The translations under genes and the position numbers were made by a program. Shown in pieces: positions 101 through 58,933 of a stretch of DNA of 64,000 bases. The DNA comes from Oegoconia quadripuncta (lineage: Eukaryota > Arthropoda > Insecta > Lepidoptera > Autostichidae): contig OX438747.1 of assembly GCA_949316235.1 (NCBI GenBank), forward strand, positions 31,340,101-31,404,100. Direction: 5' to 3'. The notes under the pieces were generated by a model. It saw only the letters and a program-made list of their open reading frames with translations. It made no database searches and was not told where the DNA came from. Position 1 is the first letter of the stretch. Every line of letters begins with the position of its first letter.

Positions 101-2376
101 AAAATTTCAAGAGTGTTTGGATAGCTTATCCTTTGCCGAAGTGTATGCAGAATCAGACCTAAATGAGGCTTTTAGTAAGTTTCATGAGATATTCTGTCTA
201 TTTTACAACCTTTGCTTCCCTAGGGTGAAAATTAAATTTAGTAGTAAACCATTTTTAAACTGGATTTCTAAAGGACTAAAACAGAGTTGTAATACTAGAC
301 GAATCCTACGCTACAAATACTATACCGCGAAAACACCCCATAATAAAATGACATATCTGAATTACACTAAACTCTTAAAAAAATGCATTGATCAAGCCAA
401 AAGAAATAATAATATCAAGTATGTACTTAACAGTAAAAACACGGTTAAAGCTACGTGGAATGTGATACAAAGTGAATCTAGTAAATCTGACCAAAATAAA
501 TATATAAATTTAATTAGAGATAAGGACAATAACATTATAACTGACCTTAGACAAATTGCCGACATTTTTAATAATTATTTCATTGATATGACACATAAAA
601 ATAAGAACAAAACTATTCAAACACATTCAAAAACAAGACATAAAAATTCTATTTTTTTGACACCAATTGATGAACAGTACGTCATACGGATAATAATGTC
701 TCTAAATAATACAAATTCAGAGGGATATGACGGCATATGTACGAAGGTTGTTAAGGCATGCAGGGGTCAGATCAGTAAGGTTTTGGCATTTTTGATTAAC
801 CTCTCAATGGCAAATGGTACCTTTCCTGAACTACTTAAGTTTTCTATCGTAAAACCTCTGTACAAAAAAGGAGACAACACTATAATGGACAATTATCGTC
901 CCATCACAATAATACCTGTGTTCTCTAAAATATTTGAGAAAGTGATGCATAATAAACTTATGGCTTTTTTGGTAAAATTTGATATTATAGATCAAAATCA
1001 ATACGGCTTTCAAAAGCAAAAATCCACTACCTTAGCCATTTTCAATCTAGTAAAGGACGTACTGTGTAGCACTAATGATAAATTATATACAACCGTTCTC
1101 TTATTTGACTTATCGAAAGCGTTTGATTTTGTATCACATGAGCAACTATTATCTAAATTGGATCACATGGGGATAAGAGGACCAGCGCTCAATTGGATCA
1201 AAATCTTCCTAGGAAATAGGCAACAATGTGTGGAGGTGATTAATTTAGACAAAAAACATGTAACGTTTGCAGTTCGTTCAGATTTAAAACAAATTTCCGT
1301 GGGTGTCCCACAGGGTAGCATACTTGGACCACTATTGTTCTTGCTTTATATCAACGACTTACCTGATGTAACGATACACAAAAGCACTTTATTCGCTGAT
1401 GACATCTCAGTAGTAGTGACAACTGATAAAAAATTGACATTAAGTATTCATGAATCTGACATTAATAAGGTAATAAATTCGATAATTCTATGGTTAAACA
1501 AAAATAATTTAAAAATTAATCTCAATAAATCCAAATACATAAACTTTAACAATTTAAAAAATTCACTTGTAATAAGACACAATGGGCAAGCTCTACTCGG
1601 TGTTAATAACGCAACTTTCCTTGGCATAATCTTAGATGAAAACTTGGACTGGAAAGAACAAGTTAACAAAGTTTGTAACAAAATTAATAGATTCACATTC
1701 CCTCTGTACAAGCTAAAAACTATAGCTACAAAACAAACGGCGATTATAGCATATCATGCTTATATTCAAACTGTTCTTCGATACGGACTAATTAGTTGGG
1801 GTAATAGTACGGAAATGAACAGAGCATTCATTGCCCAAAAAAAGTGCATACGTGCAATCAGTGGTGTTGCACAAGATGTGTCATGTAGGCCACTTTTTAA
1901 AACATTAAATATCCTACCACTGCCCTGCTTATATATATTTGAAATGGCAAAATTTATGAAGCAAAATCATAAAAAATATTATAAACAGGCTAAGGATGTG
2001 GTACAAATAAATACTCGGTACCCTGAAAAAATAATAATTAACGAGATTCCCAAATCCACGCGGTTTCAAAAAAACTGCTATTTCATGGGTAAACTAATAT
2101 ATAATAGCATTCCGACACATCTCAAGGATCAAGCATTCAATAGCTTTAAAAGGAACTTACAAATGTGGCTTCTGCAATACTCGTTTTATTCCATTAAAGA
2201 GTTCTTGGATCACAAAGACAATTAAATGCATGTTTGCATGCATTTCTTGATTTATTGGATACTGTCAAATATTTGCATGTCATTATTATGACTGAACTAG
2301 GAGGATCTTATTGTAATAACACCTAATGTAATGTACCCTATTCAAGAGCAAATAAATCATATTCTATTCTATTCTA
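101..2376 (+). mobile_element. 5'-truncated non-LTR retrotransposon (CR1/Jockey group)
   Basis: The element contains a 702-codon open frame for the reverse transcriptase part of ORF2, a short 3' UTR and an (ATTCT)n tail at 2361-2376. It lies inside a SINE-1 copy with a possible 4-bp duplication, TTCC. The apurinic endonuclease domain and ORF1 expected of full elements are missing, so this is a dead-on-arrival 5'-truncated copy. The frame is intact, so insertion is probably recent. The group assignment rests on RT motifs and the C-terminal pattern and is approximate. Confidence 0.85.
117..2225 (+). CDS. Reverse transcriptase, ORF2 fragment of a non-LTR retrotransposon
   Basis: The protein would copy its own RNA at a nicked chromosomal target. 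Visible RT motifs, by residue from the first listed codon: FDLSKAFDFVSH near 330-342, SVGVPQGSILGPLLF near 395-410, and the catalytic FADD box near 426-429. The C-terminal part has the SIPTHLKD...FK..L motif typical of the end of CR1/Jockey ORF2. The first listed codon is TTG and the frame is already open at the element's 5' edge, so no genuine start exists. The N-terminal endonuclease (roughly the first 230 residues of the family) is absent. No stop or frameshift is seen up to the TAA. As it stands the copy cannot be autonomous. It sits in the region left of the GNL1-like exons, probably in an intron of that gene. Confidence 0.85.
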   Translation: MDSLSFAEVYAESDLNEAFSKFHEIFCLFYNLCFPRVKIKFSSKPFLNWISKGLKQSCNTRRILRYKYYTAKTPHNKMTYLNYTKLLKKCIDQAKRNNNIKYVLNSKNTVKATWNVIQSESSKSDQNKYINLIRDKDNNIITDLRQIADIFNNYFIDMTHKNKNKTIQTHSKTRHKNSIFLTPIDEQYVIRIIMSLNNTNSEGYDGICTKVVKACRGQISKVLAFLINLSMANGTFPELLKFSIVKPLYKKGDNTIMDNYRPITIIPVFSKIFEKVMHNKLMAFLVKFDIIDQNQYGFQKQKSTTLAIFNLVKDVLCSTNDKLYTTVLLFDLSKAFDFVSHEQLLSKLDHMGIRGPALNWIKIFLGNRQQCVEVINLDKKHVTFAVRSDLKQISVGVPQGSILGPLLFLLYINDLPDVTIHKSTLFADDISVVVTTDKKLTLSIHESDINKVINSIILWLNKNNLKINLNKSKYINFNNLKNSLVIRHNGQALLGVNNATFLGIILDENLDWKEQVNKVCNKINRFTFPLYKLKTIATKQTAIIAYHAYIQTVLRYGLISWGNSTEMNRAFIAQKKCIRAISGVAQDVSCRPLFKTLNILPLPCLYIFEMAKFMKQNHKKYYKQAKDVVQINTRYPEKIIINEIPKSTRFQKNCYFMGKLIYNSIPTHLKDQAFNSFKRNLQMWLLQYSFYSIKEFLDHKDN

Positions 2377-13993: not shown

Positions 13994-16586
13994 TTATTTA
14001 TTGGCACCATTATTATAACCCCTCTGGAGTTCCCAATAGTTTTTATATAGTAAGTCCAAAAATGCAGACCTCTCTTTAAATGGTCTATTCCTTAAGTTTA
14101 GTTCAGAATCCAGGCTCATGTAAGGCATCTTGTTTGCGGACACTGAAGCCCATTCGACGGGCAGTAGGTCTGAAGTCTGTGGGGTTGGATCTCTGAAACA
14201 AAATTATGTTCAGTATTTATTTCAGTCAAAAGTATTTGTGTATTATTTTTGTTACGTATGTAGTATCCATCTATATGTACTATAAATGTATGGTTTTAAT
14301 TTTTGTTTATTAAATAAGTAATTAATTATGTAGCTATTTCATATCTGCATCCGCATTTTGCACAACCTACCTGTTCTGTACAGTTATACACCTACACATA
14401 AAGGTTGCCTGGATGAGATCGCGTTTAGTGATAAAGCCGCCTAATTCTACTCTTTTCAGTATTGTGCTTTGTAAAATGTATATTCTCTTTTTGTGCAATA
14501 AAGTGTATTTGTATTGTATTGTATTGTCAAAAGCTGAAGAGTACATTGACTGGTGACGCCATTCTTGATTATTAACAACTTTCTCCAAGGACCAATAGTC
14601 GATTTCAGCCGAAAATTGTTGGACTTCAATACTAAAGGTTGTTTCAGAATGATATACTTTGTTAATTAACATTATGTTATGGAAGAATGGGGCCACCCAA
14701 TACAGGTACTGTTGGAACCTAAAGGGTAACCCCCAAACATTTAATTTACTGAACTTAAGGGAAAGAAATAAATATTTTTGATTTTTGATTTTTTTTTTAC
14801 TTTGTATGGGGGAAATTTTTTTGATCGAATTCGACTATGGTTATATAGTCGGGTATAGTCGCCAGTAAACAAGAATTACATGAATTAAATTTATTTATTT
14901 ATTTATTGCATATCATATGGTTTACAATAAGCATGTGACACCCTGTAAGGGCACCGCAAAAGTATGAGAGAGAGCTTCTTATAATTAATTATATTCTCTT
15001 AACTTAAAGAAACTTAATGTAAAGAAATTCCGTATCAAGCATATTTCATACTTAATACAAAATTTCTTCATGTTAACCTAGAACTACCTTAAAACTGTTT
15101 TCAACTTATTTTAAAAACTTTTATAATATCAACTGTTTGTACTGTAAAGCTATCAAAATAGCTTAATTCCTCTCTGTTCTAGCATCATGAATGTAGTAAA
15201 ACTTACCCATATTTGATGAAATTAGCCCATAGAGTAGTCATTCTGTCAATCATGAGCTGATCTTCTATTCCTGGTGTTTCAGTTAAAGCTGCACTGTCAA
15301 ACAGATATCCCAATTCATCAGCATGCGATGCGCCTCCAAACGTTACATTATAAATCAATTTTAGATAATTCCTATCCCCTAAATATGAGAACAAGTATCT
15401 ATAAACTGCATGGGCTCCATTTTCTAAATAATTCTTAATGCTTCTCTGGGTTGGATGTAAGAACATCATATCTGATTCGAAATCGATTATCTTATCTTTT
15501 ACGTCGTTGCTTATGACCTCATCACCAATGTAGAAGTTACGTACAATCTTTGCCAATTCGACAAGGTCATCGCCAAAATCAAATAAAGCTTCAAATCTCA
15601 AATGAAACAGGTCTGCGAAATTTGTAAAGTCAGTGTGAGCGTATATATAAATCGTTTCATCATCGTTTGTACCTATCAGAATAGGCATATCTCTGACTTT
15701 GACTGCTTGTATATTTATAGGATTATCTGTAATAAATGCTTCTACGTTTTCTAATTCCTTCTCGACACAAGGTGAAAATTCAATAGCCAGTTGTGTAGCA
15801 GCTCTAAGTACTCTTTCGGCATCAATGCTAGAGAGGTACAATAACGCTGCGTTATCATCACCAGTGAAACCTAGACTTTCAGCTATTTTTGAGGCTGCAT
15901 TCACATCAGGCTCGATGACGACCCATGGAGACATCCCAGTTCCACTTTGCAGTATAGCTTTATCATACAGCTTCTCATGTCTTGACAATAAATGCAAATC
16001 AACAGAGGCACTGCCAGCACTTTCTCCAGATATTGTTATTCTATCAACATCACCACCAAAGGCTTCGATATTCTCCTTAATCCACCTCAACGCAGCAAGC
16101 TGATCTTTCAAACCCTGGTTACCTGCTGCGTCAGGGCTGTCCAAACACATAAAGCCATATGCACCTAGCCTATAATTAATTGACACAAGAATGATATCGT
16201 GCCTGACCAAATATTTCGGGCCGTAAAAAGCCCTACCTGATGTTCCGGTTATGAAGGCACCTCCATGAATCCAGACCATGACTGGAAGCTTGTTATCAAA
16301 TGTAGCAGAGTTTGGCACGTAGATGTGCAAATGGAGACAGTCCACGGTGCCTAAGAAGACATTGTTGGCTACTTGAGCGCACACCGTTGTGTCATCATAT
16401 GCTTCGAATGCGTCTTCGAATTCTGGATATGGTAGGGCCGGCTGAAATGTTCACTTGATGTTAGTGGAAGATAATCTATAATACGATGCGAAAAGTATGA
16501 CGTGTAAAGAGGCCAATTGACTGACTTAAACAGGTTCTTAAAAATGCCCGTATAGATAGATAAAGTATTTTTTAAACCACAGTGTT

Positions 16587-24481: not shown

Positions 24482-27400
24482 TTACGTATTGGTCGCATTG
24501 CTATAGCCCCTCTGGAGTGTCCAATATTTTTTAAATAGTTGGTCTAAAAAGGCAGACCGCTCTTTAAACGGTACATCCCCCAAGCTTAGTTCATAATCCA
24601 GGTTCAAGTAGGACATCTCGTTTGCGGACGTCGAAGTCCATTCGACGGGCAGTAATTCTGAAGTCTGTGGGGTCGGATTTCTGAAACAAAATTATATTTA
24701 AATTAAGATACGCTTTACGCTACGGGTCAGTACGCTTCCACCTTCGACCTCATCTTCACTTAACATCAGGTGTGATGGAGGTCAAGTGCTAACCCGTTGT
24801 GCATAAAAAAAAAAAGATATGCACCTACCTATAGATAAGAAGTATGTTAACGTGGTTTGGGTTTAAGAATCGAATGAGGAAAATAAATAAATAAATAATA
24901 AACAAAAATAAATAAATAATAAATAAATAAATTGCACATACACACAGCGCCATCTAGGTCCACAGTAAGCATCTAGGCTTTTGTTATGGATCCCAGATGG
25001 TTGATAAACTACATAAATAAAAAACATCCATAACCCGGGAACACATATCTGTATTTATCATACAAACAATTTGCCCCTGGCGGGATTCGAACCCGCGACC
25101 TTTTGGTATAGCGGTCAGAGTTTTTAACCACTACACCAAACAGGTCGTTAAAAGAAGAATAAAGATAGCATATAAGTTATGGTTAATTAAAGTTTATTGC
25201 TTTAATTGACGACGTTCAACTCTATCAGGTGATCAGGTCAATGACACTCAAAAATTCTAAGATTACTAATGTTTCTAGAACTCATTCGTTTTTCATCTTT
25301 TGTGTAGAAATCACTAATCTAGTGCGCAGGCGCCCATTACTATATATTTCGTGTTATGGTATGGTTATGGTATTCGTGTCTATTATATTTGGAAGTTTAC
25401 CTAAACCGTCACCATCGGGACCCGTGTCTTTTATTCAGAAAAGTGCACCACGATCAGGTGGTGTTGGGATCGCGTTCAGTGGGCCGATACAGGCCTTTGT
25501 GATGATGTAGCTATGTACTCTGAAGCGCATCAGGGAACACAGTTTTATTGTCAGTCGAAAATTCGACAATTATGGAGATCTTGTTATCAATTCGACTGTT
25601 TTTTTTTGTATATTTCCAAATATCTCAGACAAATGTAAATCAATTTAAATAATTGTTTTTTCATATAAAAGGGGTAGCCTGAGTCTGCCCTTGAACATCA
25701 ACTCATTAAATGTAACTAACTCATTGTGCCTTACTTATAACATTTTCTCGCTGTCTGAGCTGTACGTCCGAGAAGTACATCTGGGGTACTGGTGGCCTAA
25801 GGCACAGGCTACCTCCTAATTTAGGCATCAGTCTTCACACGTACTCACCAGACTTAAGTAACACTACTGTTATCCTGTACATTTCTCTATAGCGTGAGTT
25901 TGTGAAGAACATTATTAAGATACATTTATTATTAAAATAACTGTATTACACTATGTGTATTCTAACATTACGGACATAATAAAACTTACCCATATTTGAC
26001 AAAGTTAGTCCATAGAGTAGTCATTCTGTCAATCATAAGCTGGTCTTCTATTCCTGGTTCTTCAGTTAAAGCTGCACTGTCAAACAGATAACCCAATTCA
26101 TCAGCATGCGATGCGCCTCCAAATGTTATATGATGAGTCAGTTTATAATAATTCCTTCCCCCTAAATAAGAGAACAAATATCTATAAATTGCATTGGCTC
26201 CATTTTCCAAATAATTGTTAATGCTCCTCTGAGATGGATGCAAGAACATCATATCTGATTCGAAGTCGATGACCTTGTCTTTTACTGCGTTGCTTATGGC
26301 CGCATCACCTATGTAGAACTTACGTACGGTCCTTGCCTCTTCAACAAGATCATCACCCAAATCAAATACAGCTTTAAGTCTATCATAAAACACGTCTTTG
26401 TAATTTGTAAAGTCAGTGTGGCCGTATATAAAAAGCATTTCATCATCATTTGTACCTATCAGAATAGGCATATCTCTTACTTTGACTGCTTGTATATTTA
26501 TAGGATTATCTGTAATAAAAGCTTCTACGTTTTCTAATTCCTTCTCGACACAGGGTGAAAATTCAATACCCAGTCGTGTACCAGCTCTAAGTACAGTTTC
26601 AGCATTAATGCTGGAGAGGTACAATAACGATGCTTTGTTATCACCGACGTAGCCTAGACTTTCAGCAATTTTTGTTGCAGCATTCAAATCAGGCTCAGTG
26701 ACCACCCCTGGAGATATCCCAGCTCCACTTTCCATTATAGCTTTATCATACAGCTTTTCATGTCTTGACAATAAATGCAAGTCAACAGAGGCACTGCCAG
26801 CACTTTCTCCAGATATTGTTATTCTATCAACATTACCACCAAAGGCTTCTATATTCTCCTTAACCCACCTCACCGCAGCGAGCTGATCTTTCAAACCCTG
26901 GTTCCCTGGTACGTCAGGAGTATCTAAACACATAAAGCCATAAGCACCTAGTCTATAATTAATTGCGACTAGAATGATATCATGCCTGACCAAATATTTC
27001 GGGCCGTAGGCAGCCGTGCCTGACGTTCCTGTCAAGAAGGCACCTCCATGAATCCAGATCATGACTGGAAGCTTATTGACAGATGAAGCCGAGTCTGGTA
27101 CGTAGATTTGCAAGCGGAGACAGTCCACGGTACCTAAGAAGCGGCGGTTGTCTATTTGAGCGCACACCGTTGTGGAGTCATATGCTTCGAACGTGTCTTC
27201 GAATGCTGGATACGGTAGGGCCGGCTGAAATGTGCACTTGGTGTTAGTGGAAGATAATCTACAATAGGATACGAAAAGTAAGTATACTTTACAAAACAAT
27301 TAAACTGCAAAAAATTTACAAATCAAGCGTCGGTGGCTCAGCGGTTAAGACGCGGTCTCCCAATTTTCGATTCCCATGCAGGCCATGCACAAATGAGTTT

Positions 27401-29819
27401 TTAAATTTAATTTAATTACTTATGTGCATTTATCCGACTGCTCTTAAACGGTGAAGGAAAACATCGTGAGGAAACTTGCATGCCAATCCGCATTGGGCCA
27501 GCGTGGTGGACTATGGCCCATACTCCCTCATTATACGAGGGAAGGCCTATATCCATGCAATGGGATACTTACGGGCTGATGAAATTGGCAAATCGCCATG
27601 TTTATTTTAGAGTTTGTTCTGGCTGGACCTCGAGTATGTAACACAGTTGCTGCGTCAGCGCTCCCGTCCGCCCCGCGCTTGTCCATGCTACGGCTGTCGT
27701 TGTCGCGCACTCACGGGCATAGGTCAATTTTGTATGGATAATTACCCTTTGTAAACCTATGTATAATTAGTATTTATTTACAAAAAAAATATGTATGTAA
27801 TATATCAACCATCTGGTATCCACAACACAAGCCTATAGTTGCTTACTGTGGAACTAGATGGCGCTGTGTGTATGTCTTAAGGATATTTATTTATTATTTA
27901 TTTATGTAATCTCTTGCCAATTTTATACAAAATATAGTCCCACGGACGAGTTAAATTAATCTATTCGTTTATTTTCTGATCCCGCAATACTGGAGTCAAG
28001 GATGATCGCAACCTTACCTAAGGGTTCCGTAATGCTAAAAATAGATATTCATTAATAAACACATGCGGAGTTTTTTGCGAAGTCGGCTTAAATGAACTGC
28101 AAGTTTATCTTTATTTCTTGTATTGACATCATGTTTATCACTATTTTATTTAAATGATGCTACTTTTTTACCTCTCTAAACATAATGAGTAGGAAACTCA
28201 TCAAAATATCTACCTCTCAAGAGCGCGGGATCCAGCGTTCGACTTAGGGTCACATTTTTTTTATGCACGACGGGTTCGTACATGACCTCAGTCACACCTG
28301 ATGTTAAGTGAAGATGAGGTCGAAGTTGGAAGCGTACTGACCCGGAAACCCCAACACATTTGGGGGACTGGCTATCTTATCTCTGACAACCGGAACACAA
28401 CAATGCTATTAACATTGATGCTTGGCGGCAGATTTCGATAAGATGGTGGTAGCTAGCCAGCTCATACATACATACTCAAGGTCCAGCCTGCACAAGCTCC
28501 AAAATAAGAATAACAATAAACAAGTATTAATAAATACTTTGCACTTAAGTCTAACTCACAACACTAAGCTACTAGGCTTATATTTTCAGATACCAGATGA
28601 ACGATATACTACACAAATACATTATTTTGTAAATAAATATATCTAACTTAATAAATGCGTAAATTTGGATGTTTGTTTGTTTGTTTGTTGTTCAATCACG
28701 GCGATTGTTTAAGAAAAAAAAAAAAATATATTTCACTCACCACAAATGAGAATGTTACAAAAAGTTGATCTTAATAACTACATATATTACAAGCTCATTT
28801 GTGGGAGGCTGGTGCATGTAAAGGATAAACCAGAATCGTCGGTCACCAGGCTCCCCAGCCAGAGAAGCGGTTAGACCAACCAATTAATATATTTCCTCAT
28901 GTTATACATAACAATACATAAGCATTAAATTAAGTTTTGCCAAAAAAAATAATAAAAAGAGGGGAATAGGCACCAATGTCTCTTTTACTGCAGTTTAGTG
29001 TACAATTAAATAGAGTGCTGCACTTCTACAGTGCATGTAGGTGATGGGAGTGTAATGAATGACAGTGGGCTAGGTTATTATCATTAACAAATCTTCTGTC
29101 TTATCATAATTTAGACTTAACAGCCAATCAAAAACCAAACTTTTACAGTGAAAACGATCGAGCTCGTAGAGGGATAGTTTCTTGTGCAATTTATTATAAA
29201 GGTAGGGGCCGAGAAAAACGAAGAATTTTTGTATAAATGATGTTCTGATGTGCATAAAAATGAAAACTAATATTTTGTAACGATAATTTCCCTAAATGTT
29301 TTGAATTTAAAGAAATACCCTTCAATTGAACATTCTTTTTTAAAGAAACTCATTTTTCAACGTTTGCTTATTTAGTTACTTACTTAGTACTTGCGTTTCT
29401 TACAAATGCTTAATTTTTAGCATTTCAATCAATCAAATACTCTTTATTGCACAATTAACAAGAGCTACATGAAGAATACAGCAACTGTTACTACATTTAC
29501 AACACTTTATTAAATGTTTCAAGAAAATCGCGGTTATTCGTTTTTCCGAGGTTAAACGGTATTTTCCCTGGGCTACTAGGGACAGTGCGTTATCCGGGTT
29601 CACTGTTCAAATGAATAATTGACTTACCCCAAAATGGTTAACTTCATTGACCTTCGCGTACGGTATACCTAAGAACATGGAGTAATTCCCATCGCTGGCC
29701 CTAAGACCTCTAATTGGGCCCGCGTTTGTATTCACCAATAATGGATCCGCTCCGGTCTGCCCATAGACAATATTAATAAAACCAATGGCAAAAAAGAATG
29801 CTGTCGATTTGAATGTCAT
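24482..29819 (-). CDS. Secreted carboxylesterase (gene 2 of tandem pair)
   Basis: Exons 29628-29819, 25990-27224 and 24482-24680 give 541 residues. Splice sites, phases and exon 2 and 3 lengths (1235 and 199 nt) equal those of gene 1; exon 1 is one codon longer. The signal peptide ends VYG near residue 20. By position against gene 1: oxyanion HGG near 123-125, Ser205 in GESAG, Glu326 in GTNDDE, His437 in GASHADE. All catalytic residues are kept and there are no stops, so this copy should be active. The differences from gene 1 are mostly scattered, with a notable replacement in the stretch after GTNDDE (MLFIYGHTDF) near the active-site gorge, which may alter substrate choice. Intron 1 (2.4 kb) has gained four SINE pieces and intron 2 two more, which explains the longer gene. 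Confidence 0.93.
24722..24815 (+). mobile_element. SINE-2 3' fragment in esterase gene 2 intron 2
   Basis: CGGGTCAGTACGCTTCCACC through AACCCGTTGTGCATAAAAAA. The copy is 5'-truncated. Confidence 0.85.
24940..25148 (-). mobile_element. SINE-1 in esterase gene 2 intron 2
   Basis: ACACACAGCGCCATCTAGG, ACATCCATAACCCGGGAACAC and GCGGGATTCGAACCCGCG, up to ACACCAAACAGGTCG. Nearly complete and preceded by an (AAAT)n stretch, its own tail on -. It lies in the same orientation as the gene. Confidence 0.87.
25176..25388. repeat. Duplicated esterase-intron block, copy 2
   Basis: The partner of 23286-23481. It shares AATTAAAGTTTATTGC and ACTAATGTTTCTAGAACT, then TATTCGTGTCTATTATA. It is in place in intron 2 of the intact gene. 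Confidence 0.8.
25389..25980. other. Rest of esterase gene 2 intron 2
   Basis: A stretch at 25395-25500 encodes APRSGGVGIAFSGPIQAF on +, vaguely like part of a LINE endonuclease, but is too short to assign. Otherwise featureless. Confidence 0.35.
27325..27592 (+). mobile_element. SINE-3, reference copy
   Basis: GCGTCGGTGGCTCAGCGG head, B-box region partly deleted (TTTTCGATTCCCATGCAGG), then the forward body ACTGCTCTTAAACGGTGAAG, GTGAGGAAACTTGCATGCC and ATTGGGCCAGCGTGGTGG, ending GGGCTGATGAAATTGG. The TGCTCTTAAACGGT site is intact. It lies in intron 1 of esterase gene 2. Confidence 0.85.
27760..27905 (+). mobile_element. SINE-1 3' half in esterase gene 2 intron 1
   Basis: AACCATCTGGTATCCACAAC, TTGCTTACTGTGGAACTAG and GGCGCTGTGTGTATGTC, then a (TTTA)n tail. 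5'-truncated. The GC-rich stretch before it (27620-27720) is unclassified. Confidence 0.83.
28255..28462 (-). mobile_element. SINE-2, 5'-truncated
   Basis: TTTATGCACGACGGGTTCG through GATGGTGGTAGCTAGCCAG. The tRNA-like head is absent. It lies in esterase gene 2 intron 1, in the same orientation as the gene. Confidence 0.85.
28556..28650 (-). mobile_element. SINE-1 3' fragment, diverged
   Basis: CTACTAGGCTTATATTTTC, AGATACCAGATGAACGATAT and ACTACACAAATAC recall the SINE-1 3' body on -, with many changes. Confidence 0.55.
28651..29600. other. Rest of esterase gene 2 intron 1
   Basis: Contains old repeat pieces: TTTGGATGTTTGTTTGTTTG near 28660, also at 42110 and 46020, and an antisense CTTTATTGCACAATTAACAAG LINE end near 29440. 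No exon is required between 27224 and 29628. Confidence 0.45.
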
Positions 29820-52645: not shown

Positions 52646-53883
52646 GGGCACACTAAAAGTTTTGCACTTCTAGCTAATCGGAACTATTTGAATTTCGAAT
52701 GTCATATTTTTTGAAACGACTTGCAATCTTCTTAGTAATAAAAAAAATGTCGGGAAATCATTTGCCAATTGTTTTTATCACACATCAAAGTTCTACGTAC
52801 GCACAGAAAATGGAATTAAGTCGAAAAGATTTTATAGCGATGATTTCTTATGATTTTAAAAGTTCTCTCTCTCCGCAAGACTGTGCCGCTCGTCTTCAAA
52901 ATGCTTTTGGGAGAGAAGCACCTTATTTGAGCACCGTGAGGCGATGGTTTGCTGAATTTGAGAGAGGTCGGGTTTCTTTACATGACGAATTTGGTGAAGG
53001 GCGGTCAAGTTTCGTCAACTGCCGTCAACGAAAATAATGTGGCTACTGTTAAGCGGCTAATTGTAGAAAACCCGCGGATTACCTATGAGACAATTCGAGG
53101 GCTATTGGGGATTCGTATGAGCCAAATACAGAAAATTACACAAAGAATTAAAAGTTCGGAAACTTTGTTGGATCCCTCATGAACAGACAGCGGAGCAGAA
53201 GCGGGCTCGTGTGGAATGGTGCTCACAGATGCTACTGAAGTATGACTACGGACATTCTAATGCTGTATATGACATTGTCACAGGAGACGAAACGTGCATT
53301 TATTGTTTTGAACCCGAAAAAAAAACAGGAATCCTGTGAGTGGGTGCTTAAAAATGAGAACAGGCCAACAAAAGTGAGGCAGGCGAGAAACGTTGGTAAA
53401 AAAATAGTTGCGTTTTTTTTCTCAGCTACGGGTCCCATCTGCACAATTCCACTTGAAGATCAAAAGAGTGTTAATGCCGACTACCACACCGAAAGACGAC
53501 CAAAAAGCCGCGTTCACCTACATCATGACAACGCTTCTTCACACACGGCCAACAAAACAAAGTCATTTTTAGCTTTCGAAAAAGTACAACTCGTCACCCA
53601 TCCTGCACATAGCGACCTAGCACCCTGTGATTTCTGTATTTTCCCCAAAATCAAAGATTTTGATGAGAAGTTTCACTTTTACCAACTCCGAAGTGGCAGT
53701 GATAGCGTTCAATCAGCACATAGAAAACATGCCTTCACATCTGTGGTCCTCCTGTTTTAAAAAAATGGTTAGATCGCATAAAAAAATAGTTAATATGTAA
53801 ACGAGAGTATTTTGAAAAGCAATAAATATTTATTGGTTATAACATGTTGTTTTTTTAAGTTACGCAAAACTTTTAGTGTGACC
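52646..53883 (+). mobile_element. Mariner transposon, inactive
   Basis: Terminal inverted repeats GG(G/T)CACACTAAAAGTTTTGC: left from 52646, right ending at 53883. TA follows on the right (53884-53885); the left flank is TG, probably a mutated TA. At 1238 bp it is close to the usual 1.3 kb. The interior is a broken transposase gene. Confidence 0.85.
52810..53760 (+). pseudogene. Mariner transposase, frameshifted
   Basis: A cut-and-paste transposase of the IS630-Tc1-mariner superfamily. The N-terminal helix-turn-helix region is seen as M-E-L-S-R-K-D-F...DCAARL, then TVRRWFAEF. The frame changes near 53010 and again near 53170. The catalytic part in the last frame shows the first Asp in TGDETCIY, the second in HHDNASSHTA and the third in HSDLAPCDF, the D,D(34)D pattern of mariners, all present. 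Part of the region between the second shift and the first Asp is compressed, and the C-terminus is degraded. With at least two frameshifts the copy cannot make a functional enzyme. Confidence 0.87.
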
Positions 53884-56389: not shown

Positions 56390-56995
56390 ATAGGCGGTAT
56401 AGGTACTTCAAATATTGCATGGCATTGGTCGTGCAATGACAACCAGTGTTTAATGAATGGCCCATCCATGAAGCCTGTCACTACAACGAGTTCAATGCAC
56501 CATGGATGCCACTTTCTCACGTATAGTAGTGTGGAAGCTATCCACTCGTGCTTCCGCGAATATCCCCGATGAGATACATAAGCGAGGCAGCCGCAACAGC
56601 ATCCTGAGTGTGTTTTATGTATATTGAACGCGAAGGGTGTCAACTTTATTAAGAATATCATTAAAAGAAAAGTGAAGGGGAATAGGAAGAGAGGAAGGCC
56701 TAGAAGAATATACATAGTACACGTAGCAAAAAGTAAATGCCGTGTCGTATCAGGAAGTCAAAGAAAAGGCGGAATGTAGAGAAGTGTACTAAACTCAAAC
56801 TCCAATCATTTATTGCATTCCTTACTAGAAGTGTAGAAGGAGAAATACAACCGAATTGATAACCTCCTCCTTTTTTGGAGTCAATTAAAAATGATGGTGT
56901 GAGTTCTCCTGTAAGACGCTCGGTAGACAAGTATAATGGAGATTTCTTACATTTTGACATATTTTCATTGTCATATAACAGATTTAAAAAAATTG
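56390..56995 (+). mobile_element. Old LINE fragment (RTE-like C-terminus)
   Basis: 56640-56780 encodes RKVKGNRKRGRPRRIYIV, a basic GRPRR motif common near the end of some LINE ORF2 proteins, followed by stops. The flanking DNA on both sides is probably the same element. The clade is uncertain. Confidence 0.4.
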
Positions 56996-56999
56996 GAGC

Positions 57000-57096
57000 G
57001 TCGGTGGCTCAGCGGTTAAGACAGGCCAATGTACTAATGAGTTTTTAAATTTAGTCTAATTACTTATGAGCATATATCCGACTGCTCTTAAACGGT
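57000..57096 (+). mobile_element. SINE-3, 5' part, carrying LINE insertions
   Basis: GCGTCGGTGGCTCAGCGGTT, then a head with its B box deleted (AAGACAGGCCAATGTAC), then AATTACTTATGAGCATATATC and the site ACTGCTCTTAAACGGT ending at 57096. The normal next bases, GAAGGAAAACATCG, appear only at 58706. Confidence 0.85.
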
Positions 57097-57402
57097 CTGC
57101 TGACTGGCCACGGCAGGTTTAAGAAGCGACTGCACGCTATGTCCCTGACAGAGTCCCCGGCGTGCTACTGTGGAGACGCCACGGAGGAGGACAGGGAGCA
57201 TGCCCTATGGGTCTGCCCCCTGTATGAGGTGGAACGTCGGGAAATGCTGGCAGACATTTGGAGGTCCCTTTTTGGACCGATACACCATGGCGATCTCGTG
57301 GGGACGGAGGCGAACTACGCAAGCTTTAGAAGATACGCACACGCATGGCACAGGAAGCGGGCTCGACTCGAGTTTGAAGAACGGAACGCTTCGGAACATT
57401 AG
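57097..57402 (+). CDS. R1-like ORF2 C-terminus, element A
   Basis: The frame is open from the element edge: L-L-T-G-H-G-R-F-K-K-R-L-H, then SPACYCGDATEEDREHALWV and a stop. This is the zinc-finger-like end of R1-clade ORF2 proteins, with TGHG and C-x-C...H-x4-C (CYCG...EHALWVC). No start, no RT or endonuclease domain, so not functional. It is only about a third identical to element B by eye, so the two belong to different subfamilies. Confidence 0.78.
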   Translation: MLTGHGRFKKRLHAMSLTESPACYCGDATEEDREHALWVCPLYEVERREMLADIWRSLFGPIHHGDLVGTEANYASFRRYAHAWHRKRARLEFEERNASEH

Positions 57403-57618
57403 ATCTGCAGTCCGGGGGTGAAGCAGCCGTATTAGTGACGTCAAGCCCCAGAATGGGGAGAATTGGCCATAGGGACAAGGAGAAAGATTTAAATAATTTG
57501 TCGAGAGTCAAGAAGTGTGCTACCGGGAAAGAGCCACGAGCAAGTACCGGACACATCTCTCAACGATTCGGCCCGTATAACCAAGATGGTTGATGGGGCC
57601 ATGGGAAGGTGGAGGGTT
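57097..57618 (+). mobile_element. R1-clade LINE remnant A in SINE-3
   Basis: 522 bp, starting in the ORF2 C-terminal region and ending GGAAGGTGGAGGGT without poly-A. TGCTCTTAAACGGT stands before it (57083-57096) and after it (57619-57632). The 14-bp duplication equals the length known for R1 of the silkworm. The copy is 5'-truncated. Confidence 0.82.
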
Positions 57619-57632
57619 TGCTCTTAAACGGT

Positions 57633-58691
57633 ATATACTCTCCGCATCATATACAAGGCCACCTATTTGGCCAGTATGTGCTATGGGGCGCCGTCCTGGG
57701 TGGACAGGGCTACTATGGTTGCCGTTCGTCGTCGCTTACTCCAGAGTCAGAGGATAGCATTGCTATTCCTCTGCAAAGCCTACCGAACCACCAGTACAGA
57801 GGCTCTCCCAGTATTGGCAGGGGTATGGCCAATTGACCTGGAAATTCAAGCGCGCGTCGCCAACCACTTCCGTTCTCGTGGTCTAGCGTGGACCGACTTT
57901 AACATAGGCGACAAGTCCCGTGTGTCTCGTCTGTTTTGCGGGACTTGTGCTGAAGTGGAGGACCAACTTATGACCGATTGGCAGACCAGGTGGGACTGCT
58001 CAGAGAAGGGGAGACAGTTGTACAGGTTCTTTCCTGACACAAGGGACCGCATGGTAAAGGGGTGGTTAGATATTGACCATTGCACGTCTCAGTTCCTAAC
58101 GGGTCATGGAAACTTTAAAAGTAAACTGTTCTCGATGGCTCTGGCCGAATCTCCTGATTGTGAATGTGGAGATGGAGAACAATCGGCTCATCATATCTTA
58201 TGGGAATGCGAAAATTGGAGTAAGGAGCGCGAACTCATGCTTGACGACCTAAATTCAGAAATCCGTCCGGTATTCTACGGCGATCTGGTTTTAAACAGAC
58301 ACAACTTCCGAGCTTTCAAGCGTTTTTGCCATTCGTATTACTGGCACTATTACTCGCGGTAGCCTTAACTGCTACCGCCACGCTCACTGCATCTAGGCGC
58401 AGTCCGTGGTGTATACGAAAGCAGGAGGCCGAACTTCACTCGCCCTACTTCCCCACAGGGATGGCCCTAGTGCCATGTTGCATTTCATGGGCTACACTCC
58501 CATTTGCCAAGGGGGGAAGTGGGAAACCTTTTTCTTACTTACACACCCTATTTCTTTCTTTAATTAGCCTGGGGTCCAAGGTAGCAATAGAGTCACGTAG
58601 GGCACCGTCTACCTTCAGTAGGCGCCGTGTCGAGTACCACTGTCGATCCTAGTTTATAGGAGTTACAGTGGGAGGAGTGTGGAGGTGGGAT
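57633..58691 (+). mobile_element. R1-clade LINE remnant B in SINE-3
   Basis: 1059 bp, 5'-truncated in ORF2, with a long 3' UTR ending GGAGTGTGGAGGTGGGAT and no poly-A. It is bounded by TGCTCTTAAACGGT at 57619-57632 and 58692-58705. The GGAGG-rich last bases resemble those of element A. Confidence 0.82.
57634..58362 (+). CDS. R1-like ORF2 C-terminal third, element B
   Basis: The frame is open from the element edge: Y-T-L-R-I-I-Y-K-A-T-Y-L-A-S, then YGAPSW, LCKAYRTTSTEALPVLAGV and PIDLEI. This is the conserved post-RT region of R1/TRAS-type ORF2, where alignments show Y-R-T-x-S and A-G-x-x-P-I. The end has FLTGHGNFKSKL and the zinc finger CECGDGEQSAHHILWEC (C-x-C...H-x4-C), then a stop. Uninterrupted for 242 codons, which suggests a fairly recent insertion. 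The catalytic RT motifs and the endonuclease that would choose the target are not in this copy. Confidence 0.82.
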   Translation, partial: YTLRIIYKATYLASMCYGAPSWVDRATMVAVRRRLLQSQRIALLFLCKAYRTTSTEALPVLAGVWPIDLEIQARVANHFRSRGLAWTDFNIGDKSRVSRLFCGTCAEVEDQLMTDWQTRWDCSEKGRQLYRFFPDTRDRMVKGWLDIDHCTSQFLTGHGNFKSKLFSMALAESPDCECGDGEQSAHHILWECENWSKERELMLDDLNSEIRPVFYGDLVLNRHNFRAFKRFCHSYYWHYYSR

Positions 58692-58880
58692 TGCTCTTAA
58701 ACGGTGAAGGAAAACATCGTACGGAAACCTGCATGCCTGAAAAATAAAAATTCAAAGGCATCTGAAGTCCGCAACCCGCATTGGGCCAGCGTGTTGGACT
58801 ACGGCCCATACTCCCTCATTATACGAGGGAATTAGGCCTATGTCCTTGCAGTGGGATGTTTACGGGCTGATGATGATGAT
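58692..58880 (+). mobile_element. SINE-3, 3' part after the LINE insertions
   Basis: Target repeat TGCTCTTAAACGGT, then GAAGGAAAACATCGTACGG, AATAAAAATTCAAAGGC, CGCATTGGGCCAGCGTG and the end GGGCTGATGATGATGATG. It continues the SINE exactly where 57096 stops. Confidence 0.87.
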
Positions 58881-58933
58881 GATCACAGATTTAGCAGTCC
58901 TGTTGTTGGAGAGTTATTACACGGGTAATATTA

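What the first reader, a model, noticed from the sequence alone, without database searches (positions are those of the whole stretch)
57000..58880. Two different R1-clade LINEs at the same site of a tRNA-derived SINE
Seen: one SINE-3 copy is split at TGCTCTTAAACGGT. That 14-bp string occurs three times (57083-57096, 57619-57632, 58692-58705), separated by two LINE 3' ends of 522 and 1059 bp, and the SINE then continues in register. Both LINEs encode R1-type ORF2 C-termini but differ strongly in sequence, and both lack poly-A and end in a similar GGTGG/GGAGG-rich tail. Known: R1-clade LINEs insert into fixed sites (rDNA, telomeric repeats, some RNA genes and microsatellites), and silkworm R1 makes a 14-bp duplication. 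Inference: a group of R1-like LINEs uses this SINE as its target. SINEs are abundant and dispersed, so this would be a target-specific LINE that is not confined to one locus. The duplicated site stays usable, which explains the tandem stack. I do not know of a described LINE with a SINE target.
Basis: partly seen in the sequence, partly recalled or inferred. Interest (0 to 1): 0.92.

Follow-up and report, generated by a model that had tools for sequence, protein, structure and literature searches.

The report
Two stray R1 retrotransposons in SINE
Two R1-type jumping elements, one of them the known ribosomal-gene R1, most likely landed one after the other on the same spot of a common short repeat in an insect-like genome; the spot resembles R1's usual ribosomal target, so this is a known behaviour at a new place, not an element that targets the short repeat.

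Summary
One SINE copy (56995-58891) is split at TGCTCTTAAACGGT, which occurs three times around two 5'-truncated LINE ends of 522 bp (A) and 1059 bp (B). The 14-mer is SINE sequence and a target-site duplication.

LINE-A is R1 itself: copies 99.2% identical sit in 28S rDNA at the R1 site. LINE-B is a dispersed R1-clade relative. Both prefer AC|TG, the core of the 28S site. Of 109 A ends read, 3 are at the SINE site; of 40 B copies, 1. Genome-wide, 3 B junctions there compare with 1510 B ends, and about 8,380 SINE sites are uninterrupted. R1's site preference times SINE number predicts about 2 A copies; up to 5 are seen.

The stack is a known R1 habit: inserting into the duplication left by a resident R1 (Stage and Eickbush 2009). 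It recurs here in rDNA and at four more non-28S loci; at the three where age could be read, the upstream copy is younger. Whether ectopic stacking exceeds chance is open (6 of 103 ends, against 0.15-3.7 expected depending on assumptions).

The parts
56995..57082 (+). 5' part of the tRNA-like SINE copy, up to the insertion site (...ATCCGAC)
   Evidence: aligns with the SINE copy at 27326-27582
57083..57096 (+). target-site duplication 1 (TGCTCTTAAACGGT), SINE sequence
57097..57618 (+). LINE-A: 5'-truncated R1 (end of ORF2 57097-57402 plus 3' UTR, ends GGTGGAGGGTT, no poly-A)
   Evidence: 99.2% identical to R1 copies in 28S rDNA (L010-L012); 100% over 390 bp to the ectopic copy L014
57619..57632 (+). 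target-site duplication 2
57633..58691 (+). LINE-B: 5'-truncated copy of a dispersed R1-clade family (end of ORF2, listed ORF 57667-58362, plus 3' UTR; ends GGAGGTGGGAT)
58692..58705 (+). target-site duplication 3
58706..58891 (+). 3' part of the same SINE copy, in register

Best explanation
Two sequential off-target insertions of R1-clade LINEs by target-primed reverse transcription. The SINE happens to hold a sequence (CCGAC|TGCTCTT) close to the 28S R1 nick site (CCCAC|TGTCCCT). An R1-clade endonuclease nicked the bottom strand between C and TG; LINE-B was reverse-transcribed there, 5'-truncated, and left a 14-bp duplication. Later R1 itself (LINE-A) nicked the same junction, which the duplication at B's 5' edge had kept intact, and inserted upstream of B, copying the 14 bp again. 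Shown: family identities, duplications, site motif, dispersed copies, recurrence of stacks. Inferred: the order B then A in this copy (by analogy with L014, L035 and L166) and the enzyme steps.
For: A is R1: copies L010-L012, 99.2% identical to the window's A, are followed by TGTCCCTATCTAC, in L010/L039 continuing ATCTAGCGAAACC (28S), and LSU rRNA is detected in L039 and L040, 2 of 5 loci scanned. All 8 genome-wide matches to R1-type end plus 28S duplication are on C11 at 21.23-21.48 Mb. The R1 in L039 has an ORF1 and a 1030-aa ORF2 whose best PDB match is the silkworm R1 endonuclease 2EI9 (166 bits, against 32 for TRAS1). Site motif: 90 of 94 non-28S A sites begin TG, and of 17 upstream flanks 14 end in C and 12 have A at -2. 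For B, of 17 copies with both flanks read 12 gave a duplication; 12 of 12 flanks end in C and 9 of 12 in AC. B's endonuclease also matches R1's best (142 bits, against 47 for TRAS1). Stacks recur: in rDNA R1-TSD-R1 (L041); outside 28S at L014, L035, L166 and a stack on C11 (L162, L120, L187), besides the window. Order: in L014 the upstream copy is 100% identical to another copy read and the downstream one at most 83%, and TSD1=TSD2 differ from TSD3; in L035 90% against 82%; in L166 the two upstream duplications resemble each other more than the third. The published mechanism is the same (PMC2718515, passages and one section read).
Against: In the window itself the three duplications are identical and both LINEs are young (nearest copies about 99-100%), so the order cannot be read there and a single double event is not excluded. 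With the number of occupied sites that I counted, stacks are more frequent than site preference predicts (6 of 103; expected 0.15-0.61 with 1,659 occupied sites, up to 3.7 with an assumed 10,000), so something beyond preference may add to re-use. A-type copies at the SINE are somewhat above the prediction (up to 5 against 2.15, P 0.067). The site model rests on 17 upstream and 91 downstream flanks and a 64-kb background that includes the window's own SINE sites, and several real A sites score low in it.
Confidence: 0.9

Rival explanations
1. A group of R1-clade LINEs has evolved the SINE as its specific target.
For: 11 R1-clade insertions with the SINE 14-mer (or a near copy) at their end were found, of three lineages: A-type at window, L194, L197, L198, L200; B at window, L192, L193; a third lineage at L195, L196, L199. 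SINE sequence was also seen upstream in 8 of the 9 fetched (not in L196, where the LINE's start was not reached).
Against: They are about 0.2% of B ends (3 of 1510) and at most 5 against at least 149 A ends; the prediction from the R1 motif times 8,380 SINE sites is 2.15 A copies (P of 5 or more 0.067; not computed for B). The other copies read lie in other DNA, and A and the third lineage also occupy the 28S site.
Confidence: 0.03
2. Both LINEs inserted in one event: two RNPs, or two RNAs in succession, used the same nick.
For: All three duplications in the window are identical and both elements are young.
Against: A direct template jump would join A to B without a duplication between them. 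In L014 and L035 the stacked copies differ in distance to their nearest relatives read, and in L014 and L166 the third duplication has diverged more than the first two.
Confidence: 0.1
3. The 14-mers belong to the LINEs, or the array arose by recombination or misassembly.
For: None found beyond the repeat itself.
Against: The 14-mer is in thousands of SINEs without a LINE at the site; other LINE copies carry other duplications; A and B differ strongly in sequence and truncation. Assembly error was not tested with reads.
Confidence: 0.02

Closest known systems
R1 non-LTR retrotransposon (28S rDNA; R1Bm and Drosophila R1 of the 'ancestral type')
   Same: LINE-A is a copy of this genome's R1: 28S copies at TGTCCCTATCTACT, two ORFs, no poly-A, 13-14-bp duplications.
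   Different: The window copy is truncated and lies outside rDNA, in a SINE.
Tandem R1 arrays separated by the 14-bp duplication (Stage and Eickbush 2009, PMC2718515)
   Same: Same anatomy and same order: new copy inserted into the duplication at the 5' end of a resident R1. Two lineages can stack: a table note says that the D. ananassae R1A tandems were all found upstream of R1B.
   Different: Those arrays are at the 28S site; here the stack is at a non-28S site and mixes R1 with the dispersed family B.
Non-28S R1 insertions (Drosophila, PMC2718515; B. mori, cited there as ref. 43 and in PMC10257491 as Xiong et al. 1988)
   Same: Sites in repeated DNA with 4-9 bp identity to the 28S site around the nick, duplications of 3-14 bp. 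The SINE site shares 11 of 23 positions with 28S, including ACTG at the nick.
   Different: Host repeat is a SINE; no SINE host is mentioned in the passages read.
Target-specific R1-clade LINEs (TRAS, SART in telomeric repeats; others in RNA genes; recalled)
   Same: Same clade and endonuclease type.
   Different: A and B are not confined to the SINE.

Membership tests
R1 (for LINE-A) | insertion at the canonical 28S R1 site | tested here: met
   L010-L012 and L160 at TGTCCCTATCTAC(T) on C11, 28S continuing after L010/L039; the site sequence itself is recalled, LSU confirmed by Rfam in L039 and L040, 2 of 5 loci scanned
R1 (for LINE-A) | ORF1 plus ORF2 with APE endonuclease and RT; endonuclease closest to R1Bm | tested here: met
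   tested on the near-identical rDNA copy L039, the window copy being truncated
R1 (for LINE-A) | about 14-bp target-site duplication, no poly-A | tested here: met
R1 (for LINE-B) | insertion at the 28S R1 site | tested here: not met
   of 7 matches to B end + 28S duplication (up to 3 mismatches) the 6 on C11 have A-type or third-lineage ends; the seventh, with a GGCGGGAT-type B end, is at a 28S-like string (TGTCGCTAACTACT) on C1
R1 clade, wider (for LINE-B) | endonuclease and RT closest to R1 | tested here: met
   2EI9 142 bits vs TRAS1 47; in the 39-row tree B is next to the R1 group, 94/92 support, on a long branch, with no named TRAS/SART row included
SINE-targeting LINE | most copies at one SINE position | tested here: not met
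tandem R1 (stack) | copies separated by the target duplication, younger copy upstream | tested here: met
   anatomy in the window and at L014, L035, L166, C11 and in rDNA; order read for L014, L035, L166 only, not readable in the window
tRNA-derived SINE | tRNA-like head with pol III A and B boxes | not tested
   head GGTGGCTCAGCGGTTAAGAC looks like an A box by eye; no promoter or tRNA test was run

The most novel reading that the evidence does not exclude
Outside rDNA, a resident R1-clade copy makes its own 5' edge a preferred site for further R1-clade insertions, even from another family, beyond what the cut motif explains, so stacks form anywhere in the genome.
Probability: 0.25. Interest if true: 0.45.

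Novelty: new member of a known kind. Interest (0 to 1): 0.25.

Why it matters
It removes a tempting but wrong claim (a SINE-specific LINE) and replaces it with a clear case of how a target-specific LINE behaves off target: the same site motif, the same 14-bp duplication and the same stacking habit as in rDNA. The genome holds enough copies (at least 149 A ends and 1510 B ends) to measure R1-clade site preference in vivo, and B is a lineage near R1 that kept the site motif but was not found at the 28S site.

Tried and rejected
SINE-specific targeting: rejected on the counts above. LINE ownership of the 14-mer: rejected. Template jumping between A and B: does not explain the duplication between them. 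Nested insertion instead of stacking: L019 and L118 are A copies next to antisense B sequence at the same CCCC-rich site (L019 upstream flank CCCAC), so they were not counted as stacks; L136 and L149 have B-like sequence downstream and could be nested or stacked, and were not counted. A viral-contig scan for the empty SINE site found nothing. The Pfam scan of the two window C-termini gave only a weak zf-RVT match, below the cut-off, in A and none in B; the B ORF1 gave no Pfam match, its zinc-knuckle-like end is seen by eye. Seven paper searches were answered; in the listings I saw no title or abstract start about a LINE with a SINE target. That is not proof that none is in print.

Rows and limits: of 330 first-look candidates for A and 3987 for B only 40 each were scored. 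Flanks were read for 109 A ends (30 best; 79 of the 100 places listed, which are 100 of 149, best matches first) and 40 B copies. Of the 109, 6 at 28S or 28S-like sites (L010, L011, L012, L029, L160, L161) were set aside, leaving 103. For the 79 only 130 bp of 3' flank was compared with A, B, R1 and SINE, so stacks with other elements, or with A as the downstream member, could be missed. In the motif count 101 A ends had a recognised end (22 of 30 and 79 of 79); 7 were dropped (those six and L120), leaving 94; the window copy, L139 and L167 were left out of the site model. The 17 upstream flanks of A are those with a resolved duplication apart from the window; a further doubtful one (L034) was not used, and for L020 and L033 I set the break by hand. 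Five of 17 B copies with both flanks gave no usable duplication (L074, L076, L077, L078, L079). Whether the SINE-site copies on C18 and C19 are among the 149 A ends was not checked. L195 is put in the third lineage by its tail only; it gave no match to A, B or R1 ORF2.

Full report
What is there. The window lies in an unnamed 622.6-Mb genome (G000:C6:31340101-31404100). The three other SINE copies or pieces in the window that span the site are not interrupted.

Whose sequence is the 14-mer? It occurs 4,492 times in the genome, with 2 matches for the reversed control, and 8,380 places match the uninterrupted SINE site with up to 3 mismatches in 35 bases. At other SINE loci with a LINE at this position the duplicated string carries that copy's own changes on both sides, for example TGCTCTTAAATGGT at L194/L167 and TGCTCTTAGTCGGT at L200/L139. 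So it is SINE sequence and a target-site duplication.

LINE-A is R1. The own-genome search gave 42 matches from 40 scored of 330 candidates. Copies L010-L012, 99.2% identical to the window's A over 521 bp, lie on C11 and are followed by TGTCCCTATCTAC; L010/L039 continue into ATCTAGCGAAACC, the 28S sequence after the R1 site, and Rfam finds LSU rRNA in L039 and L040, 2 of the 5 loci scanned. The element in L039 has a 520-aa ORF1 and a 1030-aa ORF2 with endonuclease and RT; its best PDB match is the R1Bm endonuclease 2EI9. All 8 genome-wide matches to an R1-type end joined to the 28S duplication are on C11 at 21.23-21.48 Mb; three of them have a different end (GGTGGTGGGAC), a further 28S lineage.

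LINE-B is an R1-clade relative that is dispersed. The first look gave 3987 candidates, of which 40 were scored, giving 44 matches; 1510 places match its last 25 bases with up to 2 mismatches. An upstream stretch of one B copy (L106) has an ORF that ends in zinc-knuckle-like motifs (by eye), then endonuclease and RT in two overlapping frames. Its endonuclease matches R1Bm at 142 bits and TRAS1 at 47. In a 39-row tree B is next to the R1 group (support 94/92) on a long branch. No B end was found in the rDNA locus.

Target choice. Of 109 A-type 3' ends read, 6 are at 28S or 28S-like R1 sites and 3 at the SINE 14-mer (L009, L139, L167); the other 100 lie elsewhere, one of them (L137) in a SINE at another position. 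Of the 94 sites kept for the motif count 90 start with TG; of 17 resolved upstream flanks 14 end in C and 12 have A at -2. For B, 12 of 12 resolved flanks end in C and 9 of 12 in AC. Of 40 B copies only the window's is at the SINE 14-mer, and one more (L072) is in another SINE copy on the opposite strand, at CCCAC|TGCAGGG. Genome-wide 10 junctions join this kind of LINE end to the SINE 14-mer with up to 3 mismatches: two in the window, two more of B, three of A-type (C17, C18, C19) and three of the GGTGGTGGGAC lineage. L139 is one further A-type copy beyond that limit. SINE sequence was seen upstream in 8 of the 9 of these that I fetched; in L196 the LINE's start was not reached. The SINE site scores in the top 0.01% of background positions in the R1 motif model, though several real A sites score much lower. 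That preference times 8,380 sites predicts 2.15 of 149 A copies at the SINE; up to 5 are seen (P 0.067), or 4 without the window copy (P 0.17). No special affinity for the SINE is needed. Other repeats are hit repeatedly in the same way: A lies twice beside antisense B at one site (L019, L118), and L114 and L131 share a 3' flank.

The stack. It is not unique. In rDNA, L041 shows R1, a 13-bp duplication, then R1 again. Outside 28S, 6 of 103 A-type ends at 5 loci are followed by their duplication and then by another R1-clade insert: the window, L014, L035, L166 and two ends of one stack on C11 (L162 and L120, with the duplication TGTCCTATAGGAC seen at three junctions; its upstream end was not reached, and the 2.4 kb between its two ends was not read in full). 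In L166 the order is A-type then B-like, as in the window. In L014 the upstream copy is 100% identical to the window's A while the downstream copy's nearest relative read is 83%, and its third duplication differs by one base; in L035 the figures are 90% and 82%. In L166 the first two duplications differ by one base and the third by more. Younger upstream, older downstream is what Stage and Eickbush described for Drosophila rDNA: insertion of additional R1 elements into the duplication at the 5' end of a resident R1, including R1A upstream of R1B in D. ananassae; they also report R1 insertions outside 28S at sites with 4-9 bp of identity to 28S (PMC2718515; passages, the section on non-28S sites in full). 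PMC10257491 (passages) cites R1 and R2 insertion outside 28S in silkworm.

What is not settled. In the window copy A and B are both young and all duplications are identical, so the order is inferred. Whether ectopic stacks exceed chance depends on how many sites are already occupied: with the 1,659 ends counted, 0.15-0.61 would be expected in 103; with an assumed 10,000, 0.9-3.7; 6 were seen, or 5 of 102 without the window. The mean likelihood ratios used there (2,200 and 9,000) are my rough values.

Verdict. Real and correctly read as R1-clade insertions with 14-bp duplications, but not a SINE-targeting LINE: it is off-target R1 and a relative re-using one site, a new instance of a known behaviour.

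Noticed in passing
C11:21227248, 21313434, 21469453 and SINE sites C7:18290368, C7:19335579, C9:238671: A third R1-clade lineage with the end GGTGGTGGGAC occurs both at the 28S R1 site and at the SINE 14-mer.
   Followed up: partly
L040 8856 / L011 (C11 about 21.477 Mb): An R1 in rDNA is followed by its 14-bp duplication and then a different region with short R1-like matches: perhaps two R1 lineages stacked in 28S.
   Followed up: partly
L188 and L136 (C3:38028700-38029340): A-type end followed by B-like sequence and a second B-like piece; nested or stacked could not be told.
   Followed up: partly
L050-L057 against L058-L071: B has two subfamilies: one ends GGTGGGAT before TG, the other GGCGGGAT mostly before CT, as if the junction with the target shifted by one base.
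   Followed up: no
L187 1003-1278 (C11 about 21.731 Mb): The DNA after the C11 stack encodes a piece 39% identical to R1 ORF2, so that stack may itself lie in an older R1-clade element.
   Followed up: no
window 117-2225: 702-aa ORF that looks like a LINE reverse transcriptase (by eye), with SINE pieces on both sides (1-48 minus, 2735-2950 plus).
   Followed up: no
window 15203-16384 and 25986-27299 (minus): Two similar carboxylesterase-like ORFs (by eye), apparently a duplication.
   Followed up: no
window 53242-53760: ORF that looks like a piece of a mariner-type transposase (by eye).
   Followed up: no
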